Below the pieces are notes generated by a model. The model was not told where the DNA came from, made no database searches, and saw only the letters and a list, made by a program, of their open reading frames with translations. Made by a program: the position numbers and the translations under genes. 64,000 nucleotides of DNA from positions 744,001 to 808,000 of the forward strand of contig AP025252.1 in assembly GCA_016865505.2 (NCBI GenBank), given 5' to 3'. Position 1 is the stretch's first letter. Each line of letters starts with the position of its first letter. Below are positions 25,358 to 45,800 of the stretch, piece after piece. The DNA comes from Bryobacterales bacterium F-183 (GTDB lineage: Bacteria; Acidobacteriota; Terriglobia; Bryobacterales; Bryobacteraceae).

Positions 25358-25433
25358 TGGCGGCCCTAACGGGATTCGAACCCGTGTTTAAGCCTTGAGA
25401 GGGCTCCGTCCTAGACCCCTAGACGATAGGGCC
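25358..25433 (-). tRNA. tRNA-Glu (anticodon CTC)
   Basis: 76-nt tRNA on the minus strand with a 7-bp acceptor stem (GGCCCTA with TAGGGCC), discriminator G and an encoded CCA. The T arm reads ACGGGTTCGAATCCCGT. The anticodon loop CTCTCAA between GAGCC and GGCTT puts CTC in the anticodon, which reads GAG. A promoter sits immediately upstream. Confidence 0.95.
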
Positions 25434-35442: not shown

Positions 35443-36768
35443 TTACTGCTTCTTCTGTTGCGGAGGCTGACGCAGACCGTCCCAGCGCAGGTCGCCACCG
35501 CGCCAGCTCGATACCGGCAGCTTATCCCAAGCCTCACGAGTCATGCCGTTCAGGTCGTACAGCACCTTGCCGCTGCGGAACGTCAGTTCACAGGTCAGCT
35601 TCTTGTCGCTATCCATGCGGGCAGTGGTCATGTCCACAAAGCCGAACTTGCCGCGCTCCAGGCGCAGCACCGCGATGTCCGCGATCGCGCCCACCGACAG
35701 GTGCCCCAACTCCTCATGCCGGATCTCTTTTGCCGGATTCCAGGTGGACCGCAAGATCACCTGATCGAGCGGCATCCCCATCGCCAGAAACTTGCCCATC
35801 ACATTCAGCATGTCCTTCATGCCGGCGTTGGAACTCGACCGGTGCAGATCGGTTGAAATCGAATCCGGCAGAAAACCCGCCTTCATCATCGGCACCGCAA
35901 CACCCCAGCCGAAGCTCGCGCCGCCATGGCCGACGTCAAAGTAAATGCCCTTCTTGCGGCCTTCCACCAGAGCCAAGGACGGACCATGCGTCACCGGATC
36001 CTGCTCCACACGCAGACCGCTATACACGTGCGTATAAATGTCGCCTGGACGCAGGTACTTTTCAAACAGCTCATTCAACGTACGGTTGTTGCGGGTGGCG
36101 GAACCGAAGTCGATCATCACCGGGATGCCGACCTTTTTACCCACTTCCACTGCGCGCTCATACGGCATCCAGCCCGGACCGCTGTAGTGCGCACTCTTGA
36201 TGCCGACGATTGTGCCCTTGTACTTGGCAGCCATTGCCGCCGTAGGCTCAACGTCCATGTCTTCGACGTTCTGCTCAATCATCCCGGCGCCCATGCCGTT
36301 GCCGACAATGTTCAAAAACGCCAGTACGCGGGTCTTGGCGGCATCAACAATACGGGTCTTGAAGTCTTCGAAATTACGCCAGCCCGCGGAACCCGCGTCG
36401 GCCACTGTCGTCACGCCATTGCGCAGGCAGTACCCGTCCGGAAACAGCCCGTTATCGCCATTGGCGTACGAATTCCGCACCGGACCCTGGTAGACGTGCA
36501 CGTGAATATCGACCAGACCGGGAGTGACATAGAGGCCCGTGACATCCACGGTTTTCAGAGCTTTGTTGGCCGGGATATTGGTGCCGACAGCGGCGATCTT
36601 GCCATCCTTCACCGCCACGTCGCGCACGGCGTTGAGATTATTCTTGCCATCGATGACATGGCCGCCCTTGAGCAGCAGGTCGTACTCGGGGTCAGGAGTC
36701 TGCGCGGGCAGCAAAGCCAGTGCGCCAAAGCAGCAGACGGCAAGCAAACGATTACGAGAAAGGAGCAT
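35443..36768 (-). CDS. Exported amidohydrolase/deacetylase-family metallohydrolase
   Basis: 441 residues from the ATG at 36768, the better signal-peptide start (MLLSRNRLLAVCCFGALALL); an ATG at 36783 is an alternative. Metal-dependent TIM barrel related to dihydroorotase and D-aminoacylase: LLLKGGHVIDGKNN, metal-binding VDIHVHVYQG, IVGIKSAHYSG, then HGGASFGWG. The final barrel strand (SISTDLHRSS, in place of the usual aspartate loop) fits the EF_0837/AHS-like deacetylase group. A Q/P tail closes the protein. Confidence 0.88.
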   Translation of the reverse strand: MLLSRNRLLAVCCFGALALLPAQTPDPEYDLLLKGGHVIDGKNNLNAVRDVAVKDGKIAAVGTNIPANKALKTVDVTGLYVTPGLVDIHVHVYQGPVRNSYANGDNGLFPDGYCLRNGVTTVADAGSAGWRNFEDFKTRIVDAAKTRVLAFLNIVGNGMGAGMIEQNVEDMDVEPTAAMAAKYKGTIVGIKSAHYSGPGWMPYERAVEVGKKVGIPVMIDFGSATRNNRTLNELFEKYLRPGDIYTHVYSGLRVEQDPVTHGPSLALVEGRKKGIYFDVGHGGASFGWGVAVPMMKAGFLPDSISTDLHRSSSNAGMKDMLNVMGKFLAMGMPLDQVILRSTWNPAKEIRHEELGHLSVGAIADIAVLRLERGKFGFVDMTTARMDSDKKLTCELTFRSGKVLYDLNGMTREAWDKLPVSSWRGGDLRWDGLRQPPQQKKQ

Positions 36769-36837
36769 TGGTTTACTCAACATCGTATCGCTTCGCCATG
36801 CCCGTAACCGTAGCAATGCCGTATACTGAAACACCGC

Positions 36838-37713
36838 ATGAAACGGCTGTATGTATTCGTTATGCTGGCATCCATGCTGTTGCCCGCCCAATCGAAGGTA
36901 GAAGCAAACGTCATCTACGGCATGTACTCCGGCATGGCTCTGTTAATGGACGTACACCGTCCGGAAAAGCCCAACGGGTATGGCGTTATCTTCATCTCCG
37001 GCAGCGCTTGGACCGCCCCTTTGGCCTATTCCGCAGCGCCGTTGAAGTCGAATGATCAGTCGCTGATGTACGCCAAGCCGCTGGTGGCCGCCGGCTACAC
37101 CGTGTTCACCTTGAACCACCGCGCCGCTCCACGTTTCCGCTATCCCGCGCCGGTGGAGGACGCGCAACGAGCCGTGCGATTTATCCGCCACAACGCCGCA
37201 AAATTCGGCATCCGCCCGGACCGTATCGGCGCTGCAGGAGGCTCATCTGGCGGCCACCTGGTGAGCATGTTGGGGACCCTCGATGGCCAGGGCAAACCGG
37301 ATGATCCAGACCCCGTCGAGCGGGAAAGCGCCAAGGTACAGTGTGTGGCCGCGCGCGCGGCTCCAACGGATCTCTTGAAGACCCTGAACGCCCCGCTGCT
37401 CGGCATCTATTTTTCAGACGCAACGAAGAAAGATTCGCAGGAGTACAAGACGGCGCTAGAGGCATCACCGATCACCCACGTGAGCGAGGGCGATCCGCCG
37501 TTTCTGCTGACCCACGGCGATAAGGATGAGTTGATCGCGTACTCGCAATCGGAAGCGTTCGAGACGGCTCTGCGAGCGGCCGGGGTGATCGTAAAGCTAG
37601 TGAAAGTGCCCGGCGGCGGCCATGGCCCGGACTTTCCAGGGGCCGTACCGCCCGTACCGGACTACATGGGCGAAACCGTCGCCTGGTTTGACCGTTATCT
37701 CAAGCTGCCCTAG
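36838..37713 (+). CDS. Exported alpha/beta hydrolase (BD-FAE-like)
   Basis: 291 residues; signal peptide at 1-18 (RLYVFVMLASMLLPAQ). The alpha/beta fold has the nucleophile elbow GAAGGSSGGHLV (GxSxG, about residue 139), preceded by the typical DRIG strand, an acidic residue in LTHGDKDELIAYSQSE and the catalytic histidine in GGGHGPDF. The layout matches BD-FAE/esterase-type exported hydrolases of carbohydrate esters. It starts 69 bp from, and divergent to, the amidohydrolase at 36768. Confidence 0.9.
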   Translation: MKRLYVFVMLASMLLPAQSKVEANVIYGMYSGMALLMDVHRPEKPNGYGVIFISGSAWTAPLAYSAAPLKSNDQSLMYAKPLVAAGYTVFTLNHRAAPRFRYPAPVEDAQRAVRFIRHNAAKFGIRPDRIGAAGGSSGGHLVSMLGTLDGQGKPDDPDPVERESAKVQCVAARAAPTDLLKTLNAPLLGIYFSDATKKDSQEYKTALEASPITHVSEGDPPFLLTHGDKDELIAYSQSEAFETALRAAGVIVKLVKVPGGGHGPDFPGAVPPVPDYMGETVAWFDRYLKLP

Positions 37714-37716
37714 CGC

Positions 37717-38463
37717 CTAGATGCCGGCGTACCAGGAATAACCGGCTCCCACTGCGCCGCTGCCACGGCCATTCTGGACGGCGCGGATGTCGTCCGTCAC
37801 AATCATGCGGTTGATGAACTTCAGGCTCTTGTAGCCCAACTGCCTGGGTACGCGAAGGCGCATGGGTCCGCCGTGCTGTGGCGGGATTGGCGCACCGTTC
37901 ATCTCATAGGCGATCAAGGTTTGCGGGTGGTTCGCCTCGTCCATGTCGATGCTGTCCCACCAGCCATCTTGTATGGTCAAAAATGCGACGTACTTGGCCT
38001 CTGGCTTGGGCTGCAGCTGTCGAAGGACGTCGCCAAGTGGGACGCCTTTCCATTCCGCGATGTAGGACCAGCCTTCTTCACACACCAGTTGCGTGATCTG
38101 CGAAGAAGCTTTAGCGGCGTGGAGATCGGCGAGGGACAGTTCCACTCCAGGTTTTTCGACAAGCCCGTCCACCTTAAGCCGCCAATCCGCAAACCCAGCT
38201 TGTTGCATGCGGACGTAATCCTCATTCTTGGGTGGATGCGTAGTGGCAAACGGCTTGGGCGAGATCTGGTCCCGCGTGAACTCGCGGGCGTTCCCATGCT
38301 TGGTGAGCAACTTTTGCGTGGCGTGGGTCAGCACTTCTCCAGCGGCATATAGGCCACCGGTCAGACCGGCGGGGACGAGTCCCAGATCCTTGCCCTTGGT
38401 GACGGCCGTCCATCCGGCAACACCACCCACGGCTGCTGCCGCCCACTTGCGTCGGGTCATCAT
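37717..38463 (-). CDS. Molybdopterin-dependent oxidoreductase (YedY/MsrP-like)
   Basis: 248 residues with a twin-arginine signal (MTRRKWAAAAVGGVAGW). The sulfite-oxidase-fold domain has the molybdenum-ligand cysteine in LVCEEGWSYIAEW and the binding segments LVEKPGVELSLADL, ESMDEANHPQ-like DSIDMDEANHPQTLI and GGPMRLRVPRQLG. YedY reduces methionine sulfoxides in periplasmic proteins; other members act on other S- or N-oxides. Its start overlaps the stop of the upstream cytochrome gene (ATGA), the usual catalytic-plus-membrane subunit arrangement. Confidence 0.92.
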   Translation of the reverse strand: MMTRRKWAAAAVGGVAGWTAVTKGKDLGLVPAGLTGGLYAAGEVLTHATQKLLTKHGNAREFTRDQISPKPFATTHPPKNEDYVRMQQAGFADWRLKVDGLVEKPGVELSLADLHAAKASSQITQLVCEEGWSYIAEWKGVPLGDVLRQLQPKPEAKYVAFLTIQDGWWDSIDMDEANHPQTLIAYEMNGAPIPPQHGGPMRLRVPRQLGYKSLKFINRMIVTDDIRAVQNGRGSGAVGAGYSWYAGI

Positions 38464-39080
38464 GCCTGGGTGTCTCCTCCTACGGTGATAGCGCGAACAT
38501 TACTGCGAAATCCGGTGCGGATCACCATCACGACGTGGCCTGCGATGAACAGCAGCAGCGCGAGGGTGGTGAAGAAGTGCAAGGTCCTGGCGGATTGGTG
38601 GCCACCGAGCAGCGTCACCAGAAACGGAAATGTACCAACGATGGCGGGCGACATGGCAAGGCCGGTCCAAATCATGAATGGCATCAGCGCAAAGATCACC
38701 AGCAGGTACGTGCGGCGCTGCGCGGTGTTGTAGTAGCTGGCGATGCGCTGGAAGTGGCCGGTACGCAGTCCCCAGGTGCCGTAGATGAAGGCGGTGAAGA
38801 CGAGTAGCCAGGCCATTTGAAAGTGGAGTGAGCGGCTCCAGCCATTCTGGTCCGGCATGACGAATCCGTAGCCGGTGTTGACCCAAGGTCGCGAGGCGGG
38901 AATGGGGATGTCGAATAAAGATGGAGTGTTGACGTTGCCCACTTCGCCCCAGTAAAAGCGAGGGTGCGAGATGATGATTTCCGCTCCGGTGATCACCAGT
39001 GCGAGAAAGCAAAGGGTGGTGAGGGCGTGTGTAACGCGCACCAACCTCGCGTGACGGCCAGTGACAACAGGAACGGCCAT
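38460..39080 (-). CDS. Cytochrome b561-domain membrane subunit
   Basis: 206 residues with four or five membrane helices. Heme-ligand histidines sit in RLVRVTHALTTLCFLALVI (helix 1) and in FHFQMAWLLVF-type and HVVMVIRT segments; the full set fits a cytochrome b561/Ni-hydrogenase b-type fold. It probably passes quinol electrons to the molybdoenzyme encoded downstream, in the role of YedZ/MsrQ, but it is not of the YedZ sequence type. Overlaps that gene by 4 nt, so translation is likely coupled. Confidence 0.88.
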   Translation of the reverse strand: MAVPVVTGRHARLVRVTHALTTLCFLALVITGAEIIISHPRFYWGEVGNVNTPSLFDIPIPASRPWVNTGYGFVMPDQNGWSRSLHFQMAWLLVFTAFIYGTWGLRTGHFQRIASYYNTAQRRTYLLVIFALMPFMIWTGLAMSPAIVGTFPFLVTLLGGHQSARTLHFFTTLALLLFIAGHVVMVIRTGFRSNVRAITVGGDTQA

Positions 39081-39106
39081 TGCCGGATTATAGCAACCGT
39101 GCCGGA

Positions 39107-39520
39107 TTACCCCTGGTCGTAATGCGAGACGTACAAGCGGCTGTCATGATGCACAATCGCCAGTCGAACTCGATCCAGCCAGCCGGATCGGCCAAGTACA
39201 TTCTTGTTGATCGATGGATCCGCAAAGAAGTACACCGTGGCGCTGGTGACGACCCCTGCTGCGGCAATCTCAACGCTGTGGCCATAGGCATCAAAGGTGC
39301 TGTTCGCTGTGCGAAAGCGCAACGGCACACCGTCTTCCAGCCGCAGGCCAAGGACGCTCGCCAACTCCGAACGAAATAGGCAATAAGAAGCGCCTGTGTC
39401 GATGCTTGCAGTGAAGTGGAACTCGCGCACCCCAACCCGTAGGGCGATCGGGATTGTGATGCTGTCATCCCCGCTGGTTCCGCCGTAGTCAACGACCTCC
39501 ACGAACTCCAATTGATGCAT
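39107..39520 (-). CDS. Retropepsin-like aspartyl protease fold protein
   Basis: 137 residues from the ATG at 39520 (a TTG at 39532 is possible). One catalytic-type motif, SIDTGASYCLFRSEL, followed by beta strands typical of one half of a retropepsin-like fold (LRFRTANSTFDAYGHSVEI, then NVLGRSGWLDRVRLAIV). Such single-domain proteins would act as dimers. It starts 5 nt after the stop of a DUF104/DUF5678-like gene, so the pair is one operon. Whether it cuts its partner or is only a fold relative cannot be told from sequence. Confidence 0.82.
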   Translation of the reverse strand: MHQLEFVEVVDYGGTSGDDSITIPIALRVGVREFHFTASIDTGASYCLFRSELASVLGLRLEDGVPLRFRTANSTFDAYGHSVEIAAAGVVTSATVYFFADPSINKNVLGRSGWLDRVRLAIVHHDSRLYVSHYDQG

Positions 39521-39525
39521 CTGCT

Positions 39526-39873
39526 CTACCAACCGCCAAACGGCAGTCCGTTGTCGGCGGGAACGCTAGAAAAGAGCGGGTTCTCTACGCCAGCCGCAGC
39601 TGCGGCGGCCTGTACATCCGACAGCTTTGGGCCGTGTGCGATTAATCGATCGCCTTCTAGTGCCACCCACTGTCCGGCATACGGCGAAGAATTGGTGGCG
39701 AGCCATCGCAACTCTTCCTTGCGTGGATTGACCGGCACCGGTGGCCTCTCGACAGGTGAGGGCTCCGTGGTCTCTTCCACCGTCAGGCGTACCTTCTGGT
39801 GCTCGGACAAGCTGATTGGCGCGAGAGGGCGGAACACTCCCTCTTCATATACAGCTTCCACGTATCGAGACAT
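39526..39873 (-). CDS. DUF104/AF2212-like antitoxin fused to DUF5678-like domain
   Basis: 115 residues from the ATG at 39873. N-terminal MSRYVEAVYEEGVFRPLAPI and EHQKVRLTV match the DUF104 (AF2212-like) antitoxin-type beta domain; residues 50-110 with WLATNSSPYAGQWVALEGDR, and ENPLFSSVPADN, match DUF5678. A P-rich linker (about 36-48) joins them. The 3' gene is the retropepsin-like one. DUF104 proteins are listed as antitoxins in toxin-antitoxin pairs, but no PIN or other toxin gene is next to this one. The pairing is a possible unnamed two-gene unit. Confidence 0.8.
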   Translation of the reverse strand: MSRYVEAVYEEGVFRPLAPISLSEHQKVRLTVEETTEPSPVERPPVPVNPRKEELRWLATNSSPYAGQWVALEGDRLIAHGPKLSDVQAAAAAAGVENPLFSSVPADNGLPFGGW

Positions 39874-39895
39874 CAAGCCTATTGTACTGACCTGG

Positions 39896-40672
39896 TCAGT
39901 CGCCCGAGACGGCCGCCAGCTTACGCCAGATCTCACCCTGGTAGTGGAAGTCGATGCCGCATTCCGCTAGCAGTGGCCGATTCGCCGCGATCTCCAATGC
40001 AGGACCTACGGCCTTCAAATGACCACCGTGAAATACGGCAATCCGGTCGCAGCAGGCCACCACCGGGATGATCTCCTGCGAGATGACGATCACCGTTGCC
40101 TTCAGACCTCGAATCACATCAATCAGCTGGTGGACCATGCCCGGGTCCAGGTTCGCGAATGGTTCGTCAAAACCGATTACCTGTGGCCGCATTGCCAGAA
40201 CAGTCGCCAGCGCGACCCGGCGCTTTTCGCCGTGTGACAGTTCGTGAGTCCCCCGGTCGCGATACTCTTCGAGGCGCATTTGCGACAGCGCTTCCGTTAC
40301 CCGGTCGCGAACTTCTTGCGGCGGACAGCCCATATTCAACGGTCCGAAGGCGACATCCTCTTCTACCGTCGGGGTAAAGAGCTGGTCATCGGGATTCTGA
40401 AAGACGATCCCGACTTTGCTGCGCACATCTCGCAAGGTGCCGGGACCCACCGGCGTACCTGCCACGATCACTTCTCCCGAAGTGGGCAGATGTACACCGT
40501 TTAGATGGAGCAAGAACGTCGATTTGCCGGCGCCTGATGCTCCGATGATGCCCAGGCGTTCGCCCGCTGGGATGTCCAGCGTGATGTTGTCGAGCGCGGT
40601 TCGCCCGCCTGGATAGGCGAAGCTCAGGCCGCGGATCGAGATGAGGCTAGTTGATGAGTCCGCCAATGGCAT
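39896..40672 (-). CDS. Orphan CbiO/EcfA-type ABC transporter ATPase
   Basis: 258 residues from the ATG at 40672 (a TTG two codons up is possible). ATPase core: Walker A GASGAGKST, Q-loop GIVFQNPDDQLF, signature LSHGEKRRVALA, Walker B VIGFDEPFANLD. The H-loop, usually THD, is SQE (VIVISQEI), so the switch histidine is replaced by glutamine. The domain set is of the ECF nickel/cobalt type, yet no CbiM/CbiN/CbiQ membrane gene is within the window. The start overlaps the monooxygenase-like gene's end by 26 nt, implying joint translation. Confidence 0.88.
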   Translation of the reverse strand: MPLADSSTSLISIRGLSFAYPGGRTALDNITLDIPAGERLGIIGASGAGKSTFLLHLNGVHLPTSGEVIVAGTPVGPGTLRDVRSKVGIVFQNPDDQLFTPTVEEDVAFGPLNMGCPPQEVRDRVTEALSQMRLEEYRDRGTHELSHGEKRRVALATVLAMRPQVIGFDEPFANLDPGMVHQLIDVIRGLKATVIVISQEIIPVVACCDRIAVFHGGHLKAVGPALEIAANRPLLAECGIDFHYQGEIWRKLAAVSGD

Positions 40673-41957
40673 TCTCAAGCGCGCTGCTGTAGACGCCCAT
40701 AAACACCAGGCACATCTCGTCGGTGGTCTTCTCGCCCCAGCGTACCGGAATGAGCGGGTTGTTGGGGTTGTAGATGTTGGACTCCGAGTTGTTGTACGTA
40801 CAGCTCAAGCGGACGCGGTTGCCGGACTTGAGCAGTTGGGGCTCGATGTAGTCATATGACCCTTGCCATTTGAAGTCCCACTGGTCGATGTAGATGAGCG
40901 GCGTGATGACTTCGCCCCGGCGGTCCGTGATGTCCACCTTGATCTGTGTTCCCAGCAGGTGCATGTGCGGGTACACGGTCGCGATCTTGGTGGGTTCGAG
41001 CAGATGCAGCACGTCGAATAGCGTCGAAAGGCCTGCGGGGGGGAACGTCTCGTTCACCTGATGCGCAGCGTCGCCCGGCGGGATCTCGAAGCTTTGATTC
41101 AGCACCGGCACCATGAACATCGTATTCTTCGGTTTCGACTCGTGGAGGTACAGGCCGATCCGGGTCTGGTCCGGGGCGGTGCGGGACGCCGGGAAGTAGT
41201 GGACCTGCATGATGAGCTTGGCGCCCTTAGGGATCTCAATGCCCAGATCATCGGGCAGCAGGTGGGCGCGCTGGCCGGGGGCCCAACCGCCGAGCAGGCT
41301 CTTTAGGGTGCTCAGGCCGATGTCGATGCCGGGTCCGCCGAAGCAGCTATAGCCCGGTTCCGGATCCTCGGCGTCCAATTTGTCGCCGATGCCCTGGGTG
41401 TCCGCATATAAAAGGACGTGGTGGACGATGCCGCGGTCGCCGGGCAGATAGTCGATGGCCTTGACGTAGCGGGTCTGGTCAAAATCGGTGGGGATGACAA
41501 AGCAGCGGTAGACGTCCTGCCCGACCGGCGGCTCATAGGACTGGAGCATGGAAAGCACGCGGTCCGGATAGCCGAGCGACCATTCGCTCTTGTTTTCGAG
41601 CGGCGGCAGCTTTTTGCCTTCGTCACCGGCCGGTGTGCCGGCCTCGACCCAGGCCAGGATCAACTTGCGCTCATCCTCTGTTAAGGCAAACGAACCTTTG
41701 AAGTCTCCGTGCCCGGCCACCGGCTTCCATGGCGGCATCTTGCCTGTGGAAACCACGCGCTGGATGTCGGGCGAGTAGGTGACCGCTGTATCGTAATCGG
41801 GCAGCGCAAAAGGGGCGACATCGTTTTCCCGATGACAGATCTCGCACTTGTCGCGCAGAATAGGCGCGACGTTGTCGTAGTACTTCGGCGCGTCCTGGTA
41901 GGCGAACAAGGGAGACGCCAACAAAAGGGCTGTGGAAACGAAAAGCGGCTTTTGCAC
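40647..41957 (-). CDS. Copper type II ascorbate-dependent monooxygenase-like protein with heme motif
   Basis: 436 residues from the GTG at 41957; GAGAGAAGAA upstream is the ribosome site. Signal peptide (LFVSTALLLASPLFA). A CxxCH motif (CEICH, residues 38-42) lies just after it, as in monohaem cytochrome c-like domains. The rest matches the PHM/DBH-type copper monooxygenase fold: VHHVLLYA and MQVHYFP with copper-type histidines and PHMHLLGTQIKV. The product is probably periplasmic. Substrate unknown. Located upstream of the CbiO-like ATPase. Confidence 0.88.
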   Translation of the reverse strand: MQKPLFVSTALLLASPLFAYQDAPKYYDNVAPILRDKCEICHRENDVAPFALPDYDTAVTYSPDIQRVVSTGKMPPWKPVAGHGDFKGSFALTEDERKLILAWVEAGTPAGDEGKKLPPLENKSEWSLGYPDRVLSMLQSYEPPVGQDVYRCFVIPTDFDQTRYVKAIDYLPGDRGIVHHVLLYADTQGIGDKLDAEDPEPGYSCFGGPGIDIGLSTLKSLLGGWAPGQRAHLLPDDLGIEIPKGAKLIMQVHYFPASRTAPDQTRIGLYLHESKPKNTMFMVPVLNQSFEIPPGDAAHQVNETFPPAGLSTLFDVLHLLEPTKIATVYPHMHLLGTQIKVDITDRRGEVITPLIYIDQWDFKWQGSYDYIEPQLLKSGNRVRLSCTYNNSESNIYNPNNPLIPVRWGEKTTDEMCLVFMGVYSSALENAIGGLIN

Positions 41958-42208
41958 AGTGATTCTTCTCTCATTATCGACTACAAATCCGGCCGTCGCG
42001 GTGCAAAAATCCTCAGGTACCAACAATCACGTTGTTGCAGGGGACTAGGACCCCCCACCCCTGGGTACTTTTCGATTTGGTTCCAACCGTTCATTGTGAT
42101 CTTGCCGGGATGACGCCAATATAGTGGGGTCGCGCAAGGTGCTCTCGCGCGTGCCATGGCGTTTTAGGGAGAAGAACGGCGCAGCCGATAGCGCCGGAAC
42201 GAATCAAA

Positions 42209-42616
42209 ATGATCCGCAGCAACGATAACGATAACTACACATCCGGGCCGGATAACCGCCGGAAAACAAGCCGGTTTCCAATTGTCCGGGAGATCCGCTA
42301 CCGGATCTCATCGCGGGACAACCTATTTGAAACGGGCGTGGGGTCGACGGTGAACATTTCGAGTTCAGGCGTTTTGTTTTCCACCGAAAAGCCGGTCCAA
42401 CAGGGACGCCGCGTGGAGGTCGCCATTAGTTGGCCGGCGGAACTGAACCGGAACACCGCACTGAAGCTGGTGGCTCGCGGACGTATTGTGCGCGCCAACG
42501 ACGGTCAGGCGGCGGCTGAGTTGCAGAACTTCGAGTTCCGTACGATGGGGTCGGGACTAGGGTCTGCTACGGGGTCCACCATGAAGGGGTCTGTGATCCC
42601 GTTTCGTGGTGAATAA
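42209..42616 (+). CDS. PilZ-domain protein
   Basis: 135 residues. The c-di-GMP-binding motif RRKTSRF (RxxxR-type, about residues 17-23) and the NISSSGVLF motif (about 49-57) are both present, so c-di-GMP binding is likely. The protein is only the PilZ domain with a glycine/serine tail, typical of adaptor-type PilZ proteins. The gap 41958-42208 holds no gene; a GGCGC/GCGCC hairpin (about 42178-42196) sits in the leader. Target of regulation is unknown. Confidence 0.88.
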   Translation: MIRSNDNDNYTSGPDNRRKTSRFPIVREIRYRISSRDNLFETGVGSTVNISSSGVLFSTEKPVQQGRRVEVAISWPAELNRNTALKLVARGRIVRANDGQAAAELQNFEFRTMGSGLGSATGSTMKGSVIPFRGE

Positions 42617-42686
42617 TCAATAAGGCTTATAAACAAAACTGTTTAGGCAACCCCAGGAACAAGGCGGCGCTTTACCTAAATACTGT

Positions 42687-42692
42687 TATAAT
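42687..42692 (+). promoter_or_regulatory. Candidate -10 box before the Oar-like receptor
   Basis: TATAAT in the 234-bp gap between pilZ-type and receptor genes; no good -35 hexamer at 16-18 bp, so this is a weak prediction. Transcription would leave a leader of about 150 nt before the ATG at 42851. The gap also contains CCCCAGGAA and TTCCCTGGGG as inverted arms. Confidence 0.35.
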
Positions 42693-42850
42693 CGGTAACC
42701 ATCTGACCGCTTCCCTGGGGCTGTGACGCTGCTTACAAGTGGCCCTTTCCGGTTGCGGTCGCCTTGTATTGGGACTTGTCAGCCCAGTGCCAGGTAACAT
42801 CACCAAGTTGTGCGTTCGTACAGACCATTTCAAGTTGGGGGGCCTGTTGA

Positions 42851-45800
42851 ATGCATACGCAATTCAATCGTTTATCCAGGCTGATCGCATCTATCGCTCT
42901 TGCCGCGATGTACGCGTTTGGCCAACAGACGACCACTTCGCTGCGTGGAGTCATCACCGATTCGTCCGGCGCGGGAGTTCCCGAAGCCAAAGTGACATTA
43001 TCTGAGACTCGTACGGACTCCGTTCGTACGGTTCTTTCCACCGCCCAGGGCGAATACAACTTTGCCAGTGTTCCGCCCGGAAACTATTCCCTCAAAGTCG
43101 AAAAGCCCGGTTTCACCGTGAAAGTGCAGCAGAATCTCACGCTGCAGGTGAACACGCCCGCCACGAGCGATGTGACGCTCGAAGTCGGCAATCTCACCGA
43201 AACGGTGAGCGTTGAGGCTAGCGTCGCGCAGATCAACACCACAGACGCGACCATCGGCAATCCTTTTAACCAGACGCAGGTACGGCAGTTGCCGTTGGCG
43301 ACACGCAACGTGGTGGAACTGCTGAGCATCCAGCCTGGCGTGTCGCCAGGTGGACAGGTGCTGGGCGCCCGCGCGGACCAGAACAACGTCACCATCGACG
43401 GTGTCGACGCCAACGACCAGCAGAACAGCTCCAGCGACATCGCGTTTGTCAGCGTGTTGCCCGTCCCGCTTGATTCGGTGCAGGAGTTCCGCGTCACCGT
43501 CGGCGGCCAGGGCGCGGACCAGGGCCGGAGTTCCGGCGGACAGGTTTCGCTTATCACCAAGAGCGGTACGAACCAGTTCCACGGGTCCTTATACGAGTTC
43601 CATCGCAATACCGCGACGGCAGCGAATACGTTCTTCAACAACCGGTCCGGCGTGAAGCGCGAGGCGCTGGTACGCAACCAGTTCGGCGGATCGCTGGGCG
43701 GTCCGATCGTGAAGGATCGCGTATTCTTCTTTGTGAACTATGAACAGCGCATCGATGCCAGCGGCGCGGCGCAATCGCGCATTGTGCCAACCGAAAGCCT
43801 GAAACAGGGGATTGTGCGGTTCCGCCAGAACGACGGCACGATCGGGCAGTTGTCACCCGCCGAAGTCCGGCAACTCGATCCGCTCGGACAGGGTGTGAGC
43901 CAGGCGATGATCTCGTATCTTGGTCAGTTTCCCGCGGGCAACGATCCGTCGCTGGGCGATGCCGGCATCAACTTCACGGGCCTGCGCTTTAACGCGCCGT
44001 TCCGCCGCGATAACAAAGCGTACGTCGCCAAGTGGGATTTCAAGCTGGATCGCCAGGGCAACCATAGCGTGAGCTGGCGCGGTACGTTGGCCGACAACGC
44101 CGAGGACGCCGCTTTGGCCCAGTTCCCCGGGTTCGCGCCGGGATCGAAGATCCTGAACAACAGCCGCGGGTTCGCTTCACAGTACACGGGCGTGTTGCGT
44201 CCGAACCTGATCAACAACCTGAATGTCGGGTTGACGCGGTACGGGCAGGAACAGTCCGGCTTTCAGGGTACGCTGCTGACGTTTGCAGGCAATACGGGTC
44301 TTGCAGCGCCGCAGGCTACACAGCGTGGCAACGGCCGCATTACTCCGGTGTGGAACATCACCGATGACTTGAACTGGATCAAGGGCAAGCATACGGTGTC
44401 CACCGGCGTGAACTTCCGGTTTATCGGCAACGACCGGTTCAACTTCGCGCAGTCCTTTGCGGCGTTCGGCATGAGCCGCGGCACGATGCAAGGCCTGGGG
44501 TCCGACATCACGACCGCGATCACCAACTACATCCGGCAGCGGAGCGGCAGCTCGACCCTGGGCTTGTCCGCGCCGAACCCAACCATCGAAGCGATGGGCA
44601 CGGTGCTGGGCATGATCACCAACCGATCGCTGACGTTCCAGTACGACAAGAACGGGCAGGCCTTGCCGTACGGCGCGGCGCTGGCCCGCAACTTCCGCAC
44701 CAACGAGTATGAGTTCTACGTGTCCGATTCGTGGCGCGTGAATCAGTCTCTGACGTTGAACTTTGGCGTCCGCTATTCGAACTACCAGCCGCCGTATGAA
44801 ACCAACGGTACGCAGGTGAATACGACGTTTCCGCTGGATCGCTGGTTTGGCGAGCGCGTGTTCCTGATGGGACAGGGCGTGCCGGCCAACGCGATGCCCA
44901 ATGCGCGGTTGACGTATGGATTGTCGGGTCCGGTGAATGGCAAGGAATCGTGGTACGGCCGGGATAACAACAACTGGGCTCCGCGCTTCAGCTTTGCCTA
45001 TGCGCCGAAGCCCAAGGGCGGATTGCTTTCGACCCTGCTGGGCAAGAGCTCTGTGCTGCGTGGCGGCGCGTCGATGGTGTACGACCGGTTCGGTTCGGAC
45101 ATGATCGTCAATGCCGATTCGCTGGGTAGCGTGGGTCTGTCGACGCCGAGTCCCTTCCCGGCCTCGTACAACATGGCGACGGCGCCGCGCTTCACTGGTG
45201 CGTTGCCGACGATTCCGACGGCTCCGGCGGCATCGCTGCCGTTTACGCCCACCGATGTGTACGCGGTGGCGGGTACGTTCTTTGGCATCAACCCGAACCT
45301 GAAGACGCCATATTCGGTGATCCTGAACATGAACTACGCTCGCGAGATCAAGGGTGGCACGACGCTCGAAGTCGGCTATGCCGGACGTCTGGCGCGCAAG
45401 ACTCTGTTGCAGGGCGACATCTATACGCCGCTCAACCTGAAAGACAACAAGAGCGGGCAGGACTGGATCGGGATGTCGAAGCAGATGCGCGATCTGTACG
45501 AGGGCGGCTTAACGCCGTCGCAAGTGCAGGCGACGCCCGGCCGCATCGGCACCAACGCGTACATCGAGAACATGTGGCCCACGCTGGCGAACTTCTACTT
45601 CCCCGGCAATGCCACGGCAAACTACTTCTACCATCTGTTTGAAGAGAACGCCGGTAGCGACATGGACGCTCTGCATTTGCTCGATCGTGTACGCGGGTAC
45701 GCGGCGCCGTCGGGACAGTGCGCGAGCTACGCCGGTTGCTTCACGTTCTTCGCTCCGCAGGGTTCGGCGATGCCGACCTGGTTGAACGCGGGACGTTCGA

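What the first reader, a model, noticed from the sequence alone, without database searches (positions are those of the whole stretch)
39107..39873. Two-gene unit: DUF104-DUF5678-like fusion with a retropepsin-like protein
Seen: a 115-residue protein combining a DUF104 (AF2212-type antitoxin) pattern and a DUF5678-like pattern precedes, by 5 nt, a single-domain DTGAS protein. Known: DUF104 proteins are annotated as antitoxins. Inferred: the two may form a small regulatory or toxin-antitoxin-like module in which a dimeric aspartyl protease acts on, or is held by, its partner.
Basis: partly seen in the sequence, partly recalled or inferred. Interest (0 to 1): 0.55.

Follow-up and report, generated by a model that had tools for sequence, protein, structure and literature searches.

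The report
Antitoxin-like gene paired with retropepsin-like protease
Two small neighbouring genes that recur together in environmental Acidobacteria look like a toxin-antitoxin pair in which the likely toxin is an HIV-protease-like enzyme, which would be a new sort of toxin if experiments bear it out.

Summary
The pair is not chance. In two surveys that started from DUF5678 alone, 40 of 59 and 23 of 29 loci have a retropepsin-like frame (some broken) directly downstream on the same strand; in the reverse search 48 of 51 proteases have DUF5678 directly upstream. DUF5678 and protease are the constant parts; the N-terminus is exchanged, and where Pfam recognises it, it is mostly antitoxin-type (DUF104, RelB-like, FitA-like RHH, DUF433). 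In this genome the other two DUF104 genes precede PIN-type genes (one by eye only). The catalytic Asp is present in 72 of 72 distinct full-length paired proteases; a model of a homologue matches the Rickettsia protease APRc (Z 13.9). Best reading: a toxin-antitoxin-like module in which DUF5678 restrains the protease. Toxicity, inhibition and contact are inferred; the modelled interface did not resolve. Rivals: the protease cleaves its partner to relieve repression, or the partner is its adaptor. Breadth outside the phylum was not testable. Seven searches of an open-access library found no description of the pair.

The parts
39526..39873 (-). Gene A, 115-aa DUF104-DUF5678 protein, predicted antitoxin/regulator
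39772..39873 (-). AF2212-like (DUF104) domain, residues 1-34
   Evidence: Pfam PF01954 45.9 bits; nearest solved relative AF_2212, 2nwt, E 3.8e-06
39595..39681 (-). DUF5678 domain core, residues 65-93; modelled as alpha-beta-beta-alpha-beta over residues 52-103
   Evidence: Pfam PF18929 27.9 bits; model with block pLDDT 88-95 over residues 51-100
39529..39543 (-). C-terminal tail PFGGW of gene A
   Evidence: 51 of 105 paired proteins end PFGGW or PFAGW and 79 of 105 have GW in the last six residues (near-duplicates included)
39107..39520 (-). Gene B, 137-aa single-domain retropepsin-like protease
   Evidence: Pfam Asp_protease_2 31.4 bits; model of homologue L103 (60% identical) matches APRc 5c9f_A Z 13.9
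39386..39400 (-). DTGAS catalytic motif, residues 41-45 of gene B
   Evidence: D41 in 72 of 72, D[TS]G in 67 of 72 distinct full-length paired proteases
39881..39886 (-). TACAAT, -10-like hexamer 7 nt before the ATG; suggests a leaderless or nearly leaderless mRNA (inference)
   Evidence: TANAAT 5-9 nt before the start in 16 of 18 DUF104-type loci, 0.1 expected by shuffling
39886..39900 (.). Palindrome ACTGACC-A-GGTCAGT overlapping the -10 by one base, possible operator
   Evidence: shuffle p 0.04 here; 17 loci combined p 0.066, so weak

Best explanation
The two genes form a toxin-antitoxin-like (type II-like) module. Gene A is made first. Its N-terminal DUF104 domain, reported as AbrB-like, would bind DNA at the module's own promoter. 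Its C-terminal DUF5678 domain, perhaps with the hydrophobic PFGGW tail, binds the protease and keeps it inactive. Gene B is a retropepsin-like aspartic protease, presumably a dimer. When gene A protein is lost or titrated, the protease is freed and cleaves cellular proteins, stopping growth or killing the cell. Shown here: the conserved gene pair, domain identities, retropepsin fold (model), catalytic conservation, exchange of N-terminal domains, and unequal survival of the two genes alone. Inferred: binding, inhibition, autoregulation and toxicity. The target is unknown.
For: Pairing: 40 of 59 and 23 of 29 DUF5678 loci have a protease frame directly downstream on the same strand; 48 of 51 protease loci have DUF5678 directly upstream. 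Spacing is -20 to +6 nt in 97 of 103 start calls (the start nearest the upstream stop was chosen, which favours short gaps). N-termini at E<=0.01 among 101 DUF5678 proteins: AF2212-like 19, RelB-like 5, FitA-like RHH 2, DUF433 1, Phd/YefM 1 (also one of the RelB-like). Toxin context: the other two DUF104 genes of this genome precede PIN-type genes (one by eye only); one DUF5678 gene precedes a Fic/Doc gene and one a PIN-like gene just under its cut-off. Module matching: DUF5678 distance follows protease distance (Mantel r 0.60) more than the N-terminus does (r 0.17; partial 0.60 vs 0.11; 72 pairs). Asymmetry: DUF5678 without a detected protease 25 of 87 distinct, protease without DUF5678 3 of 51 (Fisher p 0.001; p 0.03 if six divergent downstream frames count as proteases and two sub-cut-off DUF5678 hits are dropped); the three lone proteases are N-truncated, at a contig edge, or a partial match. 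D41 72 of 72; dN/dS 0.06-0.30 where computable. Patchy: 38 of 200 family genomes; in 13 relatives the flanking cytochrome-molybdopterin pair has no such module beside it in the stretches held.
Against: No direct evidence of toxicity, inhibition or binding. AlphaFold2 of an in-frame read-through of a pair about 60% identical gave pTM 0.52 and a low-confidence tail, so no interface was resolved. Operator evidence is weak (combined p 0.066). In 5 of 72 distinct proteases the motif is DCG, DTV, DPG or DRG, so some may be inactive. No match on plasmids or phages and one weak hit among viral contigs, although many toxin-antitoxin modules live on such elements. At least 73 of 101 N-termini match none of the five antitoxin-type Pfam families at E<=0.01. 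Some DUF5678 proteins without a protease neighbour keep the tail (L027, L067, L069), so the tail is not tied strictly to the protease. The asymmetry test compares differently drawn samples, weakens to p 0.03 under lenient counting, and a required adaptor could also make lone proteases rare.
Confidence: 0.5

Rival explanations
1. Protease-controlled repressor: gene A is a DNA-binding repressor and gene B cleaves it on a signal, switching on the operon or other genes, as ImmA/ImmR-type metalloprotease-repressor pairs do. No toxicity is involved.
For: The partner carries DNA-binding-type domains and its conserved tail is predicted with low confidence, as a flexible tail would be. Makarova et al. 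2009 describe abundant Zn-protease/Xre pairs and propose that the protease cleaves the repressor (passages). DUF5678 genes without a protease occur.
Against: The N-terminal domain is exchanged, so no single regulon is likely to be conserved. DUF104 and DUF433 are reported as PIN-associated antitoxins, and DUF104 sits beside PIN-type genes in this genome.
Confidence: 0.22
2. Adaptor or activator: gene A recruits substrates to, or activates, a housekeeping protease; the pair is a small regulated proteolysis unit.
For: Little et al. 2025 write that the few characterised bacterial family-A2 peptidases involve other protein factors (outline with abstract and opening text). Proteases without a partner are rare (3 of 51).
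Against: DUF5678 genes without a protease are not rare; a lone adaptor should be lost as easily as a lone protease. Distribution is patchy and most loci do not share flanks.
Confidence: 0.13
3. Anti-phage abortive module: same anatomy, but the protease is released by infection and its benefit is defence rather than addiction.
For: Toxin-antitoxin modules can serve defence (general knowledge). Weak PADLOC matches to PDC-M52B, best E 0.0099.
Against: Six neighbouring genes here are ordinary metabolic, transport and PilZ genes, and the second copy lies near gyrA and pyridoxal-synthesis-type genes (named by eye). Flanks of the other loci were not scanned for defence genes.
Confidence: 0.1

Closest known systems
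VapBC-type modules with a DUF104 (AF2212-like, COG2880) antitoxin and a PIN toxin
   Same: Small DUF104 protein first, partner gene just downstream; this arrangement also occurs in this genome. DUF104 is reported as PIN-associated and AbrB-like (PMC2701414 passages).
   Different: Here DUF104 is followed by DUF5678, and the partner is a retropepsin-like protease instead of a PIN nuclease.
COG2856 Zn-protease/Xre pairs (ImmA/ImmR type)
   Same: Small protease beside a DNA-binding-type protein (PMC2701414 passages).
   Different: Aspartic, not zinc, protease; no HTH match in the window protein.
APRc of Rickettsia conorii
   Same: Closest solved fold to the modelled homologue: Z 13.9, 122 aligned, rmsd 2.7, 20% identity.
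   Different: Search listings describe APRc as a suggested modulator of rickettsial surface proteins; its gene neighbours were not examined here.
RimB of Pseudomonas fluorescens
   Same: Bacterial retropepsin-like protease acting with partner proteins (RimABK; abstract).
   Different: Works with RimK on ribosomal protein RpsF; none of six neighbouring genes here is RimK-like by Pfam.
Prokaryotic single-domain clan AA peptidases (COG3577, COG5550; TIGR02281)
   Same: About 120-residue single-domain clan AA proteins of which little was known (PMC2642776 passages).
   Different: TIGR02281 scores 17.8 bits against a cut-off of 57.95; COG membership not tested.

Membership tests
Type II toxin-antitoxin system | Two small co-directional genes, antitoxin first, tightly spaced | tested here: met
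   5-nt gap; 97 of 103 start calls within -20 to +6 nt
Type II toxin-antitoxin system | First protein has an antitoxin-type DNA-binding domain | tested here: met
   By sequence match only: AF2212-like 45.9 bits; RelB-like, RHH, DUF433 in some relatives
Type II toxin-antitoxin system | Second protein is toxic and neutralised by the first | not testable with these tools
   needs expression assays
Type II toxin-antitoxin system | Direct protein-protein complex | tested here: inconclusive
   Read-through model pTM 0.52, no resolved interface; correlated divergence r 0.60
Type II toxin-antitoxin system | Autoregulated promoter with operator | tested here: inconclusive
   Conserved -10-like hexamer (16 of 18) but palindromes combined p 0.066
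Type II toxin-antitoxin system | Patchy, multicopy, mostly non-syntenic distribution | tested here: met
   38 of 200 family genomes, up to 4 matches each; mostly unrelated flanks with several syntenic groups. No match on plasmids or phages
Retropepsin-like (clan AA) protease | Asp-Thr/Ser-Gly motif and later hydrophobic-Gly | tested here: met
   DTGAS and L109-G110 present; D[TS]G 67 of 72, G110 72 of 72
Retropepsin-like (clan AA) protease | Retropepsin fold | tested here: met
   Model of homologue L103, not of the window protein itself: APRc Z 13.9, HIV-1 protease Z about 12.5
Retropepsin-like (clan AA) protease | Homodimer with proteolytic activity | not testable with these tools
   no biochemical data
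AF2212-like (PF01954) | Pfam curated cut-off | tested here: met
   45.9 vs 21.6 bits, 34 of 59 positions
DUF5678 (PF18929) | Pfam curated cut-off | tested here: met
   27.9 vs 23.2 bits, 29 of 49 positions
COG2856/ImmA metalloprotease with Xre repressor | Zn-protease family match and HTH partner | tested here: not met
   Pfam gives only aspartyl-protease families for B and AF2212-like plus DUF5678 for A

The most novel reading that the evidence does not exclude
A toxin-antitoxin family whose toxin is a retropepsin-like aspartic protease. DUF5678 is the dedicated protease-neutralising domain, plugged onto whatever antitoxin DNA-binding domain is at hand, and its C-terminal PFGGW tail occupies the active-site cleft as a pseudo-substrate.
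Probability: 0.35. Interest if true: 0.8.

Novelty: new variant of a known kind. Interest (0 to 1): 0.62.

Why it matters
Well-known toxin-antitoxin toxins act on RNA, on DNA gyrase, on NAD or by modifying proteins (general knowledge). An HIV-protease-like toxin held by a dedicated antitoxin domain would add aspartic proteolysis to that list. It would give functions to DUF5678 and to a set of bacterial retropepsins, and raise the question of which cellular protein they cut. It is directly testable with two small genes.

Tried and rejected
A model of the complex (in-frame read-through of pair L103, 73 rows of which 18 paired) did not resolve an interface; residues 109-118 are below pLDDT 50. 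I had no coordinates or PAE, so I draw no contact map.

I suspected that DUF5678 resembles HicB. Fold searches with the window protein model gave no convincing match (best E 1.7, best Z 3.7, HicB not listed); a missing match proves nothing.

Operator palindromes: 4 of 17 loci had p below 0.05, combined p 0.066; three control stretches had 1 of 17 each, combined p 0.76-1. Left as a hint.

Plasmids and phages: no match for the window protease, nor on plasmids for three other proteases. A DUF5678 search gave two chance-level hits (one looked at). Viral contigs gave one weak hit, not followed up.

Breadth outside the phylum could not be tested. The one genome scan returned 51 loci, all with titles that I read as acidobacterial, but its single peptide pattern came from 12 closely chosen proteins of the same phylum, and the genome search stays within this phylum. 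That the window itself is acidobacterial is my inference from these relatives; no tool names it.

Rows dropped and overlaps: one search scanned 101 of 104 DUF5678 ORFs (L022, L098 and L138 left out). A1 holds 47 proteases chosen for at least 125 aa, without the divergent L016, L058-L060, L076, L079. The 72 are 83 full-length pairs reduced at 90% identity; broken copies (such as L014, L070, L078, L128, L139) are not in them, so D41 72 of 72 speaks for intact copies only. Census 1 has 59 loci for 60 hits: L071 holds two hits, L004 and L023 are the same ORF, L009 and L089 are neighbouring ORFs, and L021 and L022 are below the DUF5678 cut-off. Its 40 positives include the fragment L070 and the frameshifted L014 and L078. 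In census 2, 29 of the 61 listed matches were examined. Nine census loci are also in the set of 51; without them the asymmetry is 25 of 78 against 3 of 51 (p 0.0004), and under lenient counting 17 of 76 (p 0.013). In one search the start giving TANAAT was preferred when several were possible, which favours the count; L100 gave no usable start and was dropped; L032 and L090 are near-duplicates.

Full report
1. What is there. The finding lies on the minus strand. Gene A runs from ATG 39873 to a stop ending at 39526 (115 aa) and gene B from ATG 39520 to a stop ending at 39107 (137 aa); 5 nt separate them. Pfam assigns AF2212-like (residues 1-34, 45.9 bits) and DUF5678 (residues 65-93, 27.9 bits) to A and Asp_protease_2 (31.4 bits) to B, all above curated cut-offs. 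NCBIfam gives B only a sub-threshold clan AA match and PADLOC only weak ones. The nearest solved sequence to A is AF_2212, 2nwt; B has none at a meaningful E-value by single-sequence search.

2. The same genome as an internal control. The assembly (6.28 Mb, 4 contigs) has two DUF5678 matches and two Asp_protease_2 matches at E<=0.001. They form two pairs, the window's and one at C1:4.26 Mb with a 65% identical protease. It has four AF2212-like matches: two are in these pairs, and the other two (L144, L147) precede PIN-type genes (L144 passes the PIN cut-off, L147 has no Pfam match and is PIN-like by eye only). So within one genome the same N-terminal domain is combined either with a PIN-type partner or with DUF5678 and a protease partner.

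3. Survey from DUF5678, without asking for a protease. A phylum sample of 297 genomes gave DUF5678 matches in 21. Of 59 loci examined, 40 have a retropepsin-like frame directly downstream on the same strand by a profile built here; a few of these are broken. Among the other 19, L016, L076 and L079 have sub-threshold Pfam clan AA matches downstream; L066 and L084 look similar by eye without a Pfam match; L083 is followed by a Fic/Doc gene (57.5 bits, cut-off 24) and L085 by a PIN-like gene (22.5 bits, cut-off 23.6); L024 has what looks like a truncated protease; the rest, such as L027, L063, L067-L069 and L087, show no protease. A second survey, in the window's own family, found DUF5678 in 38 of 200 genomes; 23 of the 29 loci examined have the downstream protease frame, several broken. 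One more (L200) has a DTG-containing ORF that Pfam does not recognise, and L175, L179, L189, L192 and L194 have none.

4. Survey from the protease. A scan of one genome for each of 84,980 species, with an alignment of 12 close proteases, gave 51 loci, all with titles that I read as acidobacterial. In 48 of 51 a DUF5678 ORF lies directly upstream. Of the exceptions, L099 is an N-truncated protease, L135 lies at a contig edge and L138 is a partial match. Nine loci of the two DUF5678 surveys recur among the 51. Spacing is -20 to +6 nt in 97 of 103 start calls over all collections, most often +2 or +3 (near-duplicates included, and the start nearest the upstream stop was chosen).

5. What is constant and what varies. 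Of 101 DUF5678 proteins scanned, 99 match DUF5678 and the N-termini match AF2212-like (19), RelB-like (5), FitA-like RHH (2), DUF433 (1) and Phd/YefM (1, also RelB-like) at E<=0.01; DUF4160 and HAD_SAK_2 match three each and other families one each. NCBIfam adds RelB-family (3), BrnA (1), VapB (1) and Phd (1) matches, beside a few unrelated ones. Individual examples: L013, L025 and L026 RelB-like; L134 DUF433 at 63 bits. At least 73 of 101 N-termini match none of the five antitoxin-type Pfam families; some look like DUF2281 or AbrB to me (recalled, not confirmed by a call). DUF5678 distances follow protease distances (Mantel r 0.60, 72 pairs) more than N-terminal distances do (r 0.17; partial 0.60 against 0.11). 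The N-terminal regions are often not homologous, which by itself weakens their correlation. Many partners end in PFGGW or PFAGW (51 of 105; GW near the end in 79 of 105). The Fic/Doc- and PIN-associated proteins L083 and L085 lack this tail, while some proteins without a protease neighbour (L027, L067, L069) keep it or nearly so.

6. The protease. D41 is present in 72 of 72 distinct full-length paired proteases, D[TS]G in 67 of 72, G110 in 72 of 72, H81 in 70 of 72. The five exceptions are DCG, DTV, DPG (two) and DRG. Close pairs show dN/dS of 0.06-0.30 where computable, for both genes; several of these pairs have dS above 1 and four comparisons could not be computed. A model of the homologous pair L103 (about 60% identical) places the protease part (block pLDDT 72-92) on APRc of Rickettsia conorii (5c9f_A, Z 13.9, rmsd 2.7, 122 aligned) and HIV-1 protease (Z about 12.5). 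The window's DUF5678 domain is modelled as alpha-beta-beta-alpha-beta with block pLDDT 88-95; no convincing PDB match appeared.

7. Mobility and decay. The neighbours here are a cytochrome b561/molybdopterin oxidoreductase pair on one side and an ABC transporter ATPase on the other. Of 81 genomes searched, 13 besides the window's own have the cytochrome gene at E<=1e-20; there the cytochrome-oxidoreductase pair is kept, but neither gene A, gene B nor the ABC gene was found beside it in the stretches held. Flanks of the 48 loci are mostly unrelated, apart from several syntenic groups. DUF5678 without a detected protease: 25 of 87 distinct loci; protease without DUF5678: 3 of 51; Fisher p 0.001. 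If six divergent downstream frames count as proteases and two sub-cut-off DUF5678 hits are dropped, it is 17 of 85 and p 0.03. The samples were drawn differently, so this is supportive only. Disrupted proteases beside an intact partner domain include L014, L078, L128 and L139; sequencing errors in draft genomes may account for some.

8. Promoter. In 16 of 18 DUF104-type loci a TANAAT hexamer ends 5-9 nt before the start codon (expected by shuffling 0.1; 1 of 70 long frames in the window, real and spurious). A -10 at that distance would start transcription at or within a few nt of the start codon, giving a leaderless or nearly leaderless mRNA (inference). The start of the abstract of PMC8485053 says that toxin-antitoxin transcripts in Mycobacterium tuberculosis are predominantly leaderless (search listing). 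The window's palindrome ACTGACCAGGTCAGT overlaps the hexamer by one base, but operator evidence over 17 loci is weak (p 0.066).

9. Reading. Antitoxin-type N-termini, gene order, spacing, exchange of partners, conserved catalysis and scarcity of intact lone proteases fit a toxin-antitoxin-like module with the protease as toxin. The ImmA/ImmR-like rival (protease cleaves its partner) and the adaptor rival are not excluded. Makarova et al. 2009 (PMC2701414, passages seen) describe DUF104 and DUF433 as PIN-associated antitoxins and Zn-protease/Xre pairs; the word aspartyl does not occur in its main text. Seven searches of the open-access library, for DUF5678, retropepsin with antitoxin or toxin-antitoxin, clan AA aspartic protease with antitoxin, and related terms, showed no description of this pair in the titles and abstracts listed; one search held 148 papers of which 20 were listed. 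Subscription papers and preprints are not covered.

Noticed in passing
L083:1417-2183: A DUF5678 protein precedes a Fic/Doc-family gene (57.5 bits), so DUF5678 also occurs in a recognised toxin-antitoxin setting.
   Followed up: partly
L085 (reverse strand, about 830-1788): A DUF5678-containing frame (24.1 bits, 22.3 on the trimmed frame) precedes a PIN-like gene just under its cut-off.
   Followed up: partly
L066, L076, L079, L084: A second, divergent downstream protein type (D[CG]GADRT in L076 and L079, GVGG motif) beside a short DUF5678 protein; possibly a separate clan AA subfamily.
   Followed up: partly
L010, L064, L072, L073, L086: Paired proteases whose motif is DCG, DTV, DPG or DRG instead of D[TS]G; possibly inactive or altered enzymes.
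   Followed up: no
L004, L071: Partner proteins with two DUF5678 domains in tandem upstream of one protease.
   Followed up: no
window 36001-44000: GC skew changes sign from negative to positive and cumulative skew is lowest near 40 kb; may reflect a change of gene strand or a replication feature.
   Followed up: no
window 25358-25433: tRNA-Glu (ctc) on the minus strand, the only tRNA found in the window.
   Followed up: no
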